In this document: piece after piece, positions 10,031 through 13,775 of the stretch
Layout of the letters: each line of letters starts with the position of its first letter
Position numbering within the stretch: position 1 is the first letter of the stretch
From: Euzebya sp.
Lineage (GTDB): Bacteria; Actinomycetota; Nitriliruptoria; Euzebyales; Euzebyaceae
Direction: 5' to 3'
NCBI RefSeq assembly: GCF_964222135.1
Contig: NZ_CAXQBR010000003.1
Location: forward strand, 1 to 64,000
DNA: 64,000 bases
The notes under the pieces: model-generated
Database searches by the model: none
The model's input: the letters and a program-made list of their open reading frames with translations, nothing else
Told to the model about the DNA's origin: nothing
Position numbers and translations under genes: made by a program

Positions 10031-10052
10031 CGAACGTGTGTTCGTGTAGTGT
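10031..10052 (+). promoter_or_regulatory. LexA (SOS) box and -10 element of the radical SAM gene
   Basis: CGAACGTGTGTTCG at 10031-10044 is a perfect palindromic match to the Gram-positive/actinobacterial LexA site (CGAAC-N4-GTTCG). TAGTGT at 10047-10052 fits a -10 hexamer and is followed after 8 bases by ATG 10061, so the transcript is probably leaderless. LexA bound here would cover the -35/-10 region. Confidence 0.75.
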
Positions 10053-10060
10053 GGATGCTA

Positions 10061-12178
10061 ATGCGCTCCCTGGCCGACCTGCAGCGCGCCCCGGACGCCC
10101 TCACGGCGCCCCCTGGCCTGACCCTGCCGGTCCTGGCCACGCGCACGTTCGACACCCCCGAGTTCCGGGGCATGACCTTCCTCGAGGTCGAGACCAAGTC
10201 GGTCCTGAACAAGGTCAGCGGCATGCCGTTCGGCTGGTCGATCAACCTGTACCGGGGCTGCCAGCACGCGTGCTCGTACTGCCTGGTCCCCGACACCCCG
10301 ATCCTCATGGCCGATGGCACCCAGAAGGCGCTCGGTGATCTCGCGACCGGGGATGTGGTCTACGGCACGAAGTTGCGGGGACGGTACCGCTCCTTCGTGC
10401 CATCTCGGGTGTCGGACGTGTGGCGAAGCGTCAAGCCGGCGCACCGGATCACGTTGGCCGACGGCACCGCACTGGTGGCGAGCGGGGATCACCGCTTCTT
10501 GACCGAGCGCGGCTGGAAGCACGTCACCGGCGCCGAGCAGGGGGCGGCCCGGCGCCCGCACCTGACGACGAACAACCGGCTCTACGGTCCCGGACAGCTC
10601 CCCACAGGTCCGGCCCAGGACGAGTCCTATCGACGCGGGTACCTGTGCGGCATGGTCCGGGGCGACGGGACGTGGGGCACCTATCGCTACGAACGCGGTG
10701 GTCGGACGACGGAGGTGCACCGCTTCCGGTTGGCGCTCGTCGACGACGAACCCCTCGTGCGCACTGCACGCTACCTGGAGGGCTTCGGGGTCCCGACCGA
10801 TCGCTTCCGCTTCGCGGCCGCGACGGCGACCCGGAAGGAGGTCCAGGCCATCCGGACATCTCGCCGGGCATCGGTCGCGCGCATCGAGGAGCTGATCCGA
10901 TGGCCCGTTCACGAGGCTGACGAGGAGTGGATGCGGGGGTTCCTGGCCGGGATCTTCGACGCAGAGGGCAGCCACGCCGGAACGGTGATGCGCATCTCCA
11001 ACGCCGATGAGGACATCTTGGCGTGGACGTGTCGTTGCATGACCGCGCTCGGGGTCGAGCACGTGCGCGAGCCGGCCCGTGAGAACGGTGTGTCGTGCGT
11101 GCGCGTACGGGGAGGCTTGCCGATGCGGCTGCGCTTCCTGCTCACGACCGCGCCGGCCACGACGCGCAAGCGGCAGATCGACGGCTTGGCGGTGAAGGGG
11201 TGGAACCGCACCGACGTCGTCGCCATCGAGCCGCTGGGGGTGGACCTCCCGATGGTCGACATCTCCACGGAGACCGGGGATTTCATCGCGAACGGGATCG
11301 TCAGCCACAACTGCTTCGCCCGCCCCACGCACGAGTACCTCAACCTCAACGCGACGACGGACTTCGACACGACCGTCGTGGTCAAGGTCAACGCCGTCGA
11401 GGTGCTCCGGCGCGAGCTGGCCAAGCCGTCGTGGAAGGGCGAGCACGTCGCGATCGGGACGAACGTCGACGCCTATCAGCGGGCGGAGGGGCGCTATCAG
11501 CTGATGCGCGGGGTGATCCCGGCACTGGCGCGGTCGCTGACGCCGTTCTCGATCCTCACCAAGGGCACGCTGATCACCCGCGACGTCGACCTGCTGGTCG
11601 CCGCCAGCGAGCGGGTGCCCGTGGCGGCCTCGCTGACGATCGGGATGCTCGACGAGGCGGTGTGGCGGGCGGTCGAGCCGGGCACGCCGTCCCCGCGGGC
11701 TCGGCTGTCGGCGGTGCGGGCGCTGAACGAGGCCGGGATCCCGACCGGGGTGATGCTCGCGCCGATCATGCCGGGGCTGAACGACGGCCTCGACGACCTC
11801 CGGCGGCTGACCGAAGCCGCGGTGGAGGCGGGGGCGACCCACGTCACCCCGATCACCCTGCACCTGCGGCCCGGCGTGAAGGAGGCGTTCTGGCCGTGGC
11901 TCGAGTCGACCCACCCGGACCTGGTCGGGCGCTACGCCGAGCTGTACGGGGCCCCCGGCGGACGCAGGCGGGGCCGGTCCACGCTGCCGCCGGACGTCGC
12001 GGCACCGCTGACCGCGACGGTGCGGCGGGCGCGGGACGCCGCCTGGCGTCGCCGCGGCGGTCCACCGGACCCCGGGCACTGGCCGGATCGGACCCGGCCG
12101 GGCGAGAACGACACCGGCCACCACGTGCGCGCCGGCGGCGGGCGGGCTCCGGAGTCCGAGCAGCTGCGGCTGCTGTGA
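10061..12178 (+). CDS. Rv2578c-family radical SAM protein containing an intein
   Basis: The 705-residue precursor splices to about 361 residues. The N-extein ends ...LYRGCQHACSY, and the C-extein begins CFARPTHEYLNLN. Joined, they restore the radical SAM CxxxCxxC cluster motif (Cys67, Cys71 and the +1 Cys). Further core motifs are KGTLITRD, LTIGMLDEAVWRAVEPGTPSP and GIPTGVMLAPIMPGLND, shared with spore-photoproduct-lyase-like enzymes. The C-terminus is basic. An in-frame ATG at 10055 is an alternative start, but the -10 spacing favours 10061. The SOS box implies DNA-damage induction. From memory, the M. tuberculosis homologue is also in the LexA regulon. The reaction is unknown. Confidence 0.9.
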   Translation: MRSLADLQRAPDALTAPPGLTLPVLATRTFDTPEFRGMTFLEVETKSVLNKVSGMPFGWSINLYRGCQHACSYCLVPDTPILMADGTQKALGDLATGDVVYGTKLRGRYRSFVPSRVSDVWRSVKPAHRITLADGTALVASGDHRFLTERGWKHVTGAEQGAARRPHLTTNNRLYGPGQLPTGPAQDESYRRGYLCGMVRGDGTWGTYRYERGGRTTEVHRFRLALVDDEPLVRTARYLEGFGVPTDRFRFAAATATRKEVQAIRTSRRASVARIEELIRWPVHEADEEWMRGFLAGIFDAEGSHAGTVMRISNADEDILAWTCRCMTALGVEHVREPARENGVSCVRVRGGLPMRLRFLLTTAPATTRKRQIDGLAVKGWNRTDVVAIEPLGVDLPMVDISTETGDFIANGIVSHNCFARPTHEYLNLNATTDFDTTVVVKVNAVEVLRRELAKPSWKGEHVAIGTNVDAYQRAEGRYQLMRGVIPALARSLTPFSILTKGTLITRDVDLLVAASERVPVAASLTIGMLDEAVWRAVEPGTPSPRARLSAVRALNEAGIPTGVMLAPIMPGLNDGLDDLRRLTEAAVEAGATHVTPITLHLRPGVKEAFWPWLESTHPDLVGRYAELYGAPGGRRRGRSTLPPDVAAPLTATVRRARDAAWRRRGGPPDPGHWPDRTRPGENDTGHHVRAGGGRAPESEQLRLL
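10280..11311 (+). other. Intein with LAGLIDADG homing endonuclease (344 residues)
   Basis: It runs from Cys1 (TGC 10280) to the terminal Asn (AAC 11309-11311). Splicing block A is CLVPDTPILMADGTQKALGD. Block B is LVASGDHRFLTERGW with the His. Endonuclease motifs are GYLCGMVRGDG and GFLAGIFDAEG. Blocks F/G read VDISTETGDFIANG then IVSHN, followed by Cys+1. All splicing residues (Cys1, block B His, penultimate His, Asn, Cys+1) are present, and both acidic endonuclease residues are kept, so it looks able to splice and possibly to home. Codon use is less GC3-biased than the exteins (more TTG, AAG, GGT, GAT), which suggests later arrival. Confidence 0.93.
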
Positions 12179-12293: not shown

Positions 12294-13775
12294 GTGGGAC
12301 GCGACATCGAGAGCATCGAGTTCACCCGCGAGGACCGCCGCCGGTACCGCGAGAAGGTGAAGGTCTGCCTGCAGGTCCTCCGCCAGCTGATGGACGAGGG
12401 GCGGTTCTCGACCGGCCAGCGCACCCTGGGCGTCGAGCTGGAGATCTACCTGACCGACGACCACGCCCAGGTGCTCCCCGTGAACGCCGAGGTGCTGGAC
12501 GCCCTGGCCTCCCCCGAGTTCCAGACCGAGCTCGCCCAGTTCAACATGGAGTTCGCGACCTCCCCGCGGGCGGTGGTCGGGGACTGCTTCACCCACGTGG
12601 AGGACGAGCTCCGCCAGTCCCTCGACCGGGCCAACGAGAAGGCCCGCGACGTCGACGCCCGCGTCATCATGATCGGGATCCTGCCGACCCTCACCGACTT
12701 CGACGTCACCGAGCAGAACCTGTCGGCCAACCCGCGCTACAAGGCGCTGAACGACGCCATCCTGAACGCGCGCGGCGAGGACCTCGTCATCGACATCGCC
12801 GGCGACGAGAACCTGTCCGCGGTCACGAACTCGATCGTCTTCGAGGCCGCGTGCACCTCCATGCAGCTCCACCTGCAGGTCGACCCGGGCGACTTCGCCC
12901 GGTACTGGAACGCGGCGCAGGCCCTGAGCGGCCCGCTGGTCGCCGTGGCCGCGAACTCGCCGTTCTTCCTCGGCAAGCGGCTGCACCACGAGACCCGGAT
13001 CGCGCTGTTCCAGCAGGCCATCGACACCCGGACCGAGGAGCTCGCCGAGCAGGGCGTCCGCCCCCGGGTGTGGTTCGGCGAGCGCTGGCTGACCGACGGC
13101 GTGTTCGAGCTGTTCGAGGAGAACGTCCGCTACTTCCCCTCCCTCCTGCCGATCACCGAGTCGACCGACCCCGAGGGCATGCTCGTCGACGGGCAGCTGC
13201 CCGCCCTCGAGGAGCTCACGCTGCACAACGGGACGATCTACCGCTGGAACCGGCCGGTGTACGACATCGCCGGCGGCGAGCCGCACCTGCGGATCGAGAA
13301 CCGGGTCCTGCCCGCCGGCCCGACGGTCATCGACTGCACGGCCAACATCGCGCTGTACTACGGCCTGCTCGGCGGGTTGGCCGAGGCCTCCGCGCCCGTG
13401 TGGGAGGCGATGAGCTTCCAGGCCGCGGAGTCCAACTTCTTCGAGGCCGCCCGCTACGGGATGGGGTCGCGGCTGTACTGGCCCGGGCTCGGCACGCTGC
13501 CGGCGGCAGAGCTGATGGTGCGCCACCTCCTCCCCCTCGCCCGCAAGGGGTTGGAGGAGTGGGGGGTCGACGCCGCCGACATCGACCGCTACCTCGGCAC
13601 GATCGAGCAGCGCGCCCTGTCCGGCCAGAACGGGGCGGCCTGGCAGATCGCCGCGCACGAGCGGCTCCTGGCCGAGGGGATGGACCGCGCCGAGGCCGCG
13701 ATCACCCTGACCACCCGCTACGCCGACCTGCACGAGTCCGGGGTGCCGGTCCACCAATGGCCGGTGGTCGCCTGA
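12294..13775 (+). CDS. GCS2-family carboxylate-amine ligase (glutamate-cysteine ligase-like)
   Basis: A 493-residue cytoplasmic ATP-dependent ligase of the GCS2 superfamily. It forms an amide between a carboxylate (classically the Glu gamma-carboxyl) and an amine. Visible motifs are GQRTLGVELEIYLTD, the EFATSPRAVVGD region, SMQLHLQVDP and RIENRVLPAGPTVIDC. It starts at GTG 12294 with GGGAGG (12283-12288) as a strong ribosome-binding site. Since the organism makes mycothiol, classical glutathione synthesis is unlikely. An ergothioneine-type EgtA role is possible, but no egt genes are nearby. The next gene overlaps or adjoins and encodes a zinc deacylase, suggesting one pathway. Confidence 0.85.
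   Translation: MGRDIESIEFTREDRRRYREKVKVCLQVLRQLMDEGRFSTGQRTLGVELEIYLTDDHAQVLPVNAEVLDALASPEFQTELAQFNMEFATSPRAVVGDCFTHVEDELRQSLDRANEKARDVDARVIMIGILPTLTDFDVTEQNLSANPRYKALNDAILNARGEDLVIDIAGDENLSAVTNSIVFEAACTSMQLHLQVDPGDFARYWNAAQALSGPLVAVAANSPFFLGKRLHHETRIALFQQAIDTRTEELAEQGVRPRVWFGERWLTDGVFELFEENVRYFPSLLPITESTDPEGMLVDGQLPALEELTLHNGTIYRWNRPVYDIAGGEPHLRIENRVLPAGPTVIDCTANIALYYGLLGGLAEASAPVWEAMSFQAAESNFFEAARYGMGSRLYWPGLGTLPAAELMVRHLLPLARKGLEEWGVDAADIDRYLGTIEQRALSGQNGAAWQIAAHERLLAEGMDRAEAAITLTTRYADLHESGVPVHQWPVVA

What the first reader, a model, noticed from the sequence alone, without database searches (positions are those of the whole stretch)
10061..12178. Intein placed exactly at the third Fe-S cysteine of an SOS-linked radical SAM enzyme
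The C-extein +1 Cys is both the splicing nucleophile and the last Cys of CxxxCxxC, so the cluster cannot form until splicing occurs. Coupled with the LexA box, enzyme activation could be gated at two levels: induction by DNA damage and splicing sensitive to redox or metal state. The intein keeps both LAGLIDADG motifs and differs in codon use, suggesting an active homing element. The intein-bearing family is known; conditional splicing here is the untested idea.
Basis: partly seen in the sequence, partly recalled or inferred. Interest (0 to 1): 0.72.

Follow-up and report, generated by a model that had tools for sequence, protein, structure and literature searches.

The report
Intein at radical-SAM enzyme's cluster cysteine
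A self-splicing mobile element sits exactly at the third iron-sulphur cysteine of a DNA-damage-inducible, probably DNA-repair-related enzyme; the arrangement is real and recurs in dozens of relatives, it copies the anatomy of a known redox-switched intein, but nothing in the genomes shows that this one is used as a switch.

Summary
ORF 10061-12178 is an Rv2578c-family radical-SAM protein with a class-1, LAGLIDADG-bearing intein (10280-11311). Its C+1 is the third Cys of CxxxCxxC, and an exact LexA box lies at 10031-10044. NCBIfam already names the arrangement (NF038136, 696.6 bits, just under its cutoff of 700).

(1) Intein Cys1 itself occupies the third-Cys position, so the precursor already reads CxxxCxxC in 50 of 50 inteins. 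The motif is not absent before splicing; C1 is a potential ligand, and a ligand or disulfide state would block splicing. (2) LexA control belongs to the host gene: boxes occur equally in intein-bearing and intein-free orthologues (34/38 vs 61/72). (3) Presence is sporadic, 2 of 4 in the sampled genus. Intein and extein histories are decoupled and the endonuclease is under purifying selection: a homing element.

Redox-gated splicing through Cys(-3)-Cys1 is published for the P. abyssi MoaA intein, also a radical-SAM enzyme. It is plausible here but untested.

New here: related inteins (~32% identity) sit at the equivalent third Cys of a different family, DUF5131, so this residue is a recurrent intein niche; and the same genome's SOS-regulated recA carries two more inteins.

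The parts
10031..10044 (.). LexA (SOS) box CGAACGTGTGTTCG
   Evidence: Exact palindrome; 15 sites in the genome vs 0 control; the same box precedes lexA, recA and dnaE2 here; conserved in 95 of 110 actinobacterial orthologues at <=1 mismatch.
10047..10052 (+). -10-like TAGTGT just downstream of the box; the start codon follows within 3-9 nt, so a leaderless transcript is likely (inference)
   Evidence: Sequence; TANNNT lies within 12 nt downstream in 31 of 100 boxed genes vs 3.8% by shuffling.
10061..12178 (+). Rv2578c-family radical-SAM gene with intein, 705 aa precursor (an in-frame alternative ATG lies at 10055)
   Evidence: NF038136 3e-209 and NF038135 1.8e-121; single copy in the genome.
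10061..10279 (+). N-extein (73 aa), ending GCQHACSY; carries cluster Cys -7 (10259-10261) and -3 (10271-10273)
   Evidence: C-7 and C-3 invariant in 50/50 intein-bearing relatives.
10280..11311 (+). Intein, 344 aa, class 1: C1, block B S68-G-D-H71, D327, terminal His343-Asn344
   Evidence: TIGR01445 over cutoff; C1, H71, D327 and HN 50/50 invariant; AF2 model matches PI-PfuI and TliVMA inteins.
10481..10492 (+). Block B motif SGDH (Ser in place of the usual Thr of TxxH)
   Evidence: S68 46/50, H71 50/50.
10628..11179 (+). Homing endonuclease domain, monomeric double-LAGLIDADG, I-DmoI-like fold
   Evidence: Foldseek I-DmoI TMt 0.67-0.78; PF14528; omega 0.13-0.33 in relatives; absent from 9 of 50 mini-inteins.
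10640..10669 (+). LAGLIDADG motif 1, YLCGMVRGDG (catalytic-position Asp129)
   Evidence: Asp at this position in 37 of 41.
10940..10969 (+). LAGLIDADG motif 2, FLAGIFDAEG (catalytic-position Glu229)
   Evidence: Glu at this position in 36 of 41.
11258..11311 (+). Intein C-terminal blocks F/G, DISTETGDFIANGIVSHN
   Evidence: D327, H343, N344 invariant.
11312..12178 (+). C-extein, C+1 FARPTHEY...; completes CxxxCxxC after ligation; SPL-like radical-SAM barrel

Best explanation
This is a mobile intein with a probably active LAGLIDADG homing endonuclease. It has colonised the most conserved DNA and protein spot of an SOS-regulated, SPL-like radical-SAM gene: the codon of the third cluster cysteine. 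After LexA is inactivated the gene is transcribed from a LexA-overlapped, probably leaderless promoter. The 705-aa precursor splices autocatalytically: C1 thioester, transesterification by C+1, Asn344 cyclisation. Ligation places C+1 as the third [4Fe-4S] ligand. Splicing is therefore obligatory for enzyme activity, but is most simply constitutive. The site is explained by conservation (a conserved homing target, a ready Cys nucleophile, and low tolerance of imprecise deletion) and not by regulation. Redox or metal sensitivity of C1, which lies two residues from the cluster Cys(-3), is a chemically plausible side effect. Shown here: anatomy, conservation, distribution, mobility signatures, LexA box. 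Inferred: splicing competence, endonuclease activity, constitutive splicing.
For: All splicing residues are invariant in 50 inteins. Presence is sporadic: 27 changes on a 133-leaf extein tree (shuffled mean 39.7), and in the window's genus G000 and G002 carry it while G001 and G003 lack it. Extein and intein distances are nearly uncorrelated (rho 0.12). L102/L104 have near-identical hosts (0.10) but unrelated inteins (1.25). The intein also occurs in MAG contigs labelled Gammaproteobacteria and Myxococcales and in the PA0069-like branch. Endonuclease omega is 0.13-0.33, and the fold is I-DmoI-like. Full-length inteins have lower GC3 than their hosts (78.3 vs 89.4, p=1e-11), mini-inteins do not. 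Intein-free orthologues keep the LexA box and the enzyme. No internal Cys other than C1 is conserved, and several mini-inteins contain only C1.
Against: No splicing or cleavage was measured. All four sampled species of one genus (g20) keep mini-inteins that cannot home, so something (cost of removal, or function) retains them. The same Cys(-3)/Cys1 geometry is a demonstrated redox trap in P. abyssi MoaA (PMC10663303).
Confidence: 0.72

Rival explanations
1. Redox-gated activation, MoaA-type: under oxidising conditions Cys(-3), the second cluster Cys, forms a disulfide with intein C1 and blocks the first splicing step; on reduction the intein splices and the oxygen-labile radical-SAM enzyme is released only when its cluster can survive.
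For: Identical spacing, C(-3)-x-x-C1, in 50/50 family members. Direct precedent in another radical-SAM enzyme, P. abyssi MoaA, with a Cys-3/Cys1 disulfide controlling splicing (PMC3922620, PMC10663303). Catalytic-Cys redox switching shown for a mycobacterial DnaB intein (PMC6195587).
Against: Cys(-3) is dictated by the cluster motif, so its conservation says nothing about regulation. The intein is absent from many close orthologues under the same promoter. The bacterial cytoplasm is reducing. Redox sensitivity is not universal among class-1 inteins (PMC6195587).
Confidence: 0.15
2. Metal or cluster-gated splicing: C-7, C-3 and intein C1 together bind Fe, Zn or a cluster in the precursor, so that C1 is either a ligand or a nucleophile, never both; splicing reports the state of the cluster site.
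For: The precursor has the complete linear CxxxCxxC through C1. Zn and Cu bind Cys1 or the catalytic Cys and block splicing of RecA, DnaB and Prp8 inteins (reviewed in PMC8529194).
Against: The AF2 precursor has low confidence at the motif loop (block means about 52 around C-7..C1 and 46-52 after C+1, vs 93-96 in an intein-free orthologue), consistent with no preformed site; this is weak evidence. C1 duplicating the host Cys is expected for any Cys-type intein inserted before a Cys codon.
Confidence: 0.06
3. Two-level SOS gate: DNA damage both induces the gene and triggers splicing, so the intein was recruited into SOS control.
For: An exact LexA box lies at the gene. RecA in the same genome also carries two inteins, and all three inteins detected by TIGR01445 in this genome are in LexA-boxed genes. 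ssDNA/DNA-damage-responsive splicing is known for P. horikoshii RadA (PMC10663303).
Against: The box is independent of the intein (Fisher p=0.57). Intein-bearing PA0069-type genes have no such box. Other genomes of the order carry inteins in many non-SOS contexts, so three of three is a small-number observation.
Confidence: 0.04

Closest known systems
NCBIfam NF038136, intein-containing Rv2578c family radical SAM protein (parent NF038135)
   Same: Same host family, same insertion point, aligned over residues 11-631 at 696.6 bits.
   Different: Scores 3.4 bits under the curated cutoff (700), as a divergent member; otherwise the same thing.
Pyrococcus abyssi MoaA intein (Callahan et al. 2011, as described in PMC3922620 and PMC10663303)
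   Same: Intein in a radical-SAM enzyme with Cys(-3) and Cys1 two residues apart; published disulfide control of splicing.
   Different: Archaeal hyperthermophile, another enzyme family; sequence not compared here (record not held). Redox control shown there, untested here.
Inteins in DUF5131/PF07505 three-Cys proteins (Streptomyces plasmid NZ_CP129127.1; genome G258)
   Same: About 32% identical over the full intein (plasmid copy); inserted at the third Cys (GC-x6-C-D-N | C1 ... HN | C+1-YA) with Cys(-3) kept.
   Different: Different host family and motif spacing; only weak profile similarity between the hosts (hhalign probability 32.5%).
Mycobacterial SufB and DnaB (DnaBi1) inteins
   Same: Inteins proposed as oxidative/metal sensors; SufB is also Fe-S-related (PMC8529194, PMC6195587).
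   Different: SufB is a cluster-assembly protein and has no radical-SAM motif; DnaBi1 is class 3 with an internal disulfide.
Spore photoproduct lyase (PDB 4FHC and others)
   Same: Closest solved fold of the mature enzyme, TMq 0.64-0.67, E 4e-9, and closest by profile, E 2.5e-4; SplB homologues are predicted SOS-regulated in other bacteria (PMC3323433).
   Different: About 15% identity; only the three cluster Cys are invariant in the family, so the SPL H-donor Cys is not conserved and the substrate is unknown.

Membership tests
Rv2578c-family radical-SAM protein | Profile match NF038135/NF038136 | tested here: inconclusive
   Full-length alignment, E 3e-209 and 1.8e-121, but 696.6 vs cutoff 700 and 405 vs 430. 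Orthologues of the whole class score below the cutoff, so the cutoff excludes a subclade, not homology.
Rv2578c-family radical-SAM protein | CxxxCxxC in the N-terminal part, radical-SAM barrel | tested here: met
   GCQHACSYC after splicing; PF04055; AF2/Foldseek SPL-like barrel in orthologue L138.
Class 1 intein | C1 (or S1), block B [ST]xxH, block F Asp, terminal HN, C/S/T+1 | tested here: met
   C1, S68xxH71, D327, H343-N344, C+1; Ser instead of Thr in block B.
Class 1 intein | Autocatalytic excision and extein ligation | not testable with these tools
   Needs expression.
LAGLIDADG homing endonuclease | Two LAGLIDADG motifs with acidic catalytic positions, monomeric fold | tested here: met
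   D129/E229; I-DmoI TMt up to 0.78.
LAGLIDADG homing endonuclease | Cleavage of the intein-free allele and homing | not testable with these tools
   Indirect support only: sporadic distribution, HGT, omega below 1.
LexA/SOS regulon | LexA box in the promoter, shared with lexA and recA | tested here: met
LexA/SOS regulon | Induction by DNA damage | not tested
   No expression data; a radical-SAM protein is listed in the core Gram-positive SOS regulon (PMC7739468).
Redox-trap intein (P. abyssi MoaA type) | Cys(-3) two residues before Cys1 | tested here: met
   50/50; forced by the cluster motif.
Redox-trap intein (P. abyssi MoaA type) | Cys(-3)-Cys1 disulfide that reversibly blocks splicing | not testable with these tools
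   Needs biochemistry.
Spore photoproduct lyase | Conserved H-atom-donor Cys beyond the three cluster ligands | tested here: not met
   Only C56, C60, C63 are invariant Cys in 39 intein-free orthologues. SPL-like fold, not filed as SPL.

The most novel reading that the evidence does not exclude
The third radical-SAM cysteine is a recurrent intein niche across separate families (Rv2578c/PA0069, DUF5131, archaeal MoaA), where intein C1 stands in for the missing ligand. Disulfide or metal/cluster occupancy of C-7/C-3/C1 holds the precursor inactive and its release triggers splicing. In this organism that would stack on a RecA with two inteins of its own, so both the SOS inducer and one of its effectors would be splicing-gated.
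Probability: 0.1. Interest if true: 0.75.

Novelty: new member of a known kind. Interest (0 to 1): 0.42.

Why it matters
Whether inteins are ever more than parasites is an open question, and radical-SAM enzymes are good test cases because the catalytic nucleophile and a cluster ligand fall on the same residue. This family offers a natural panel: intein-bearing, mini-intein and intein-free alleles of one SOS-regulated enzyme, some within one genus, with the LexA box constant. Redox or metal effects on splicing could be measured in a mesophile. The recurrence of the same insertion residue in DUF5131 suggests a general rule about where inteins settle in cluster-binding proteins.

Tried and rejected
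(1) 'Cluster impossible before splicing': rejected as stated, since C1 restores the linear motif. (2) LexA box as an intein-linked trait: rejected, Fisher p=0.57. (3) Conserved extra cysteines in the intein as a redox sensor: rejected; the Cys in LAGLIDADG motif 1 (position 123) is in 32 of 41 full-length inteins but not in minis nor in the sister intein G002, and no other column is conserved. (4) G001's unique CL-ARPTH as a scar of intein loss: not established; TGT-TTT-GCT also occurs in unrelated intein-free alleles and G001/G002 are similar along the whole gene. (5) Co-conversion footprint: the His(-5) codon is CAT in 36/50 intein-bearing vs 25/76 empty alleles (p=2e-5), but this falls away with phylogenetically independent pairs (median p 0.38), so suggestive only. 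(6) Phage 'radical SAM protein-like' hit Rctr197k: its host is a helicase-like protein (by eye) and the annotation probably follows the intein. (8) Literature search for Rv2578c plus intein gave nothing on its splicing.

Full report
**What is there.** The ORF at 10061-12178 (705 aa; an in-frame ATG also lies at 10055) matches NCBIfam NF038136, 'intein-containing Rv2578c family radical SAM protein', over residues 11-631 at 696.6 bits (cutoff 700), and the intein-free parent model NF038135 at 405 bits. The whole class of genomes around this one scores just under the parent cutoff, so this is a subclade effect. It is the only copy in the genome; there is no intein-free paralogue. C+1 becomes the third Cys of CxxxCxxC.

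**A correction to the reasoning.** C1 of the intein also stands at that position, so the unspliced protein already reads C-QHA-C-SY-C. This holds for 50 of 50 non-redundant inteins collected here, with C-7, C-3, C1, HN and C+1 all invariant. 'The cluster cannot form until splicing' is therefore not a consequence of the sequence. A correct statement is that C1 can be a ligand or a nucleophile but not both, and that the C-extein half of the barrel is 344 residues away. AlphaFold models fit loss of the ordered motif loop in the precursor (mean pLDDT about 52 for the ten residues with C-7, C-3 and C1, and 46-52 after C+1) against 93-96 in an intein-free orthologue. This is weak evidence, as pLDDT around junctions is often low.

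**Splicing and endonuclease parts.** Splicing residues are those of a class-1 intein, with Ser for Thr in block B (S68-G-D-H71), D327 and H343-N344. The insert between the splicing blocks is a double-LAGLIDADG domain whose model matches I-DmoI (TMt up to 0.78), and the whole intein matches PI-PfuI and TliVMA. Asp129 and Glu229 occupy the catalytic positions. In nine pairs of relatives the endonuclease evolves under purifying selection wherever omega could be computed (0.13-0.33, seven pairs; two saturated). Nine of 50 relatives have mini-inteins of 150-168 aa without the endonuclease, and five more are shortened to 288-312 aa, while splicing residues stay intact: the usual homing cycle.

**Codon use.** GC3 is 88.4% in the intein against 96.1% in the exteins, and 96-99% in three neighbours. 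Across 41 full-length inteins the mean is 78.3 vs 89.4 (Wilcoxon p=1e-11); for nine minis there is no difference. This agrees with mobility but does not prove it.

**Distribution and mobility.** In the window's genus, G002 carries the intein; G001 and G003 have an uninterrupted CSYC-LARPTH / CVYC-FARPTH. On an extein tree of 133 sequences presence changes at least 27 times (shuffled labels 39.7), so it is clustered but labile. Intein and extein distances are nearly uncorrelated (rho 0.12). Two almost identical hosts (L102, L104; distance 0.10) carry unrelated inteins (1.25). The intein is also in the PA0069-like branch and in MAG contigs labelled Gammaproteobacteria and Myxococcales. One genus (g20) has mini-inteins in all four sampled species: the best place to look for domestication.

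**SOS link.** The box CGAACGTGTGTTCG at 10031-10044 is exact. The motif occurs 15 times in the genome, 0 for the reversed control, including upstream of lexA, recA and dnaE2. A -10-like TAGTGT follows at 10047-10052, placing the box over the promoter and suggesting a leaderless mRNA (inference; 31 of 100 boxed relatives have TANNNT there vs 3.8% by chance). Boxes at <=1 mismatch are found in 34/38 intein-bearing and 61/72 intein-free actinobacterial orthologues (Fisher p=0.57), while intein-bearing PA0069-type genes lack them. SOS control is therefore an old property of the host gene. The literature lists a radical-SAM protein in the core Gram-positive SOS regulon (PMC7739468) and predicts SOS-regulated splB in proteobacteria (PMC3323433).

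**Host enzyme.** The model of the intein-free orthologue L138 (pLDDT 94) is closest to spore photoproduct lyase (E 4e-9, TMq 0.65), also by profile. Only the three cluster cysteines are invariant, so the substrate may differ from SPL's.

**Recurrence at the same residue.** The best relative of this intein in the plasmid collection (29.7% identity, full length; 32% in the multiple alignment) sits in a DUF5131 (PF07505) protein of a Streptomyces plasmid, next to TcmP, and again exactly at the third Cys with Cys(-3) preserved: GCDN|CLAPETLV...THN|CYA. A second case is G258 (read). DUF5131 resembles a TIGR04471 'radical SAM mobile pair protein A' profile but is only weakly similar to the Rv2578c profile. 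With the published MoaA case this makes three separate families. The site DNA is similar (TGC-TCG-TAC|TGC-TTC-GCC vs TGC-GAC-AAC|TGC-TAC-GCC), which may explain ectopic jumps.

**Mechanism and verdict.** The parsimonious reading is a homing parasite in a conserved active-site codon, obligatory but constitutive splicing, with a LexA promoter that predates it. Redox gating by Cys(-3)-Cys1 has a direct precedent in P. abyssi MoaA (PMC10663303, PMC3922620) and metal inhibition at Cys1 in other inteins (PMC8529194), so conditional splicing is plausible but not evidenced here: there is no conserved sensor residue beyond those forced by the cluster motif, and sister species do without the intein under the same promoter.

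Noticed in passing
L173 (G000:C16:14500-20000, minus strand), LexA box at C16:18981-18994: recA of the same genome carries two inteins, one in the P-loop (GPESSGK|C...HN|TT) and one before SPETTPGG. All three inteins found by TIGR01445 in this genome are in LexA-boxed genes. RecA inteins are common in the order.
   Followed up: partly
L219 2001-3005 (NZ_CP129127.1 81504-82508) and L248 (G258:C135): DUF5131 three-Cys proteins with an intein at the third Cys, homologous to the window's intein; the stretch is unannotated in the plasmid record.
   Followed up: yes
L019 2375-3571 and L020 about 244-1386 (Actinomadura): Free-standing ORFs homologous to this intein, with intact LAGLIDADG motifs but no usable Cys1 or HN-C and no extein, between unrelated genes: an intein apparently turned into a free-standing endonuclease.
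   Followed up: partly
KX853510.1 (L218), phage Rctr197k: A 1089-aa protein annotated 'radical SAM protein-like' looks like a helicase (by eye) with an intein distantly related to this one; the annotation probably follows the intein.
   Followed up: partly
L021 (Solirubrobacterales MAG): An intein-bearing rSAM gene in which the frame breaks within the intein and the C-extein start is missing: a degenerate allele or assembly error.
   Followed up: no
L136 (G001) site: The only empty allele with Leu at +2 (CLARPTH); its sister G002 has the intein, whose second residue is Leu. Possible scar of loss, not resolved.
   Followed up: partly
window 12294-13775: The gene just downstream, same strand, is a divergent GCS2-type glutamate-cysteine-ligase-like protein far below family cutoffs.
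   Followed up: no
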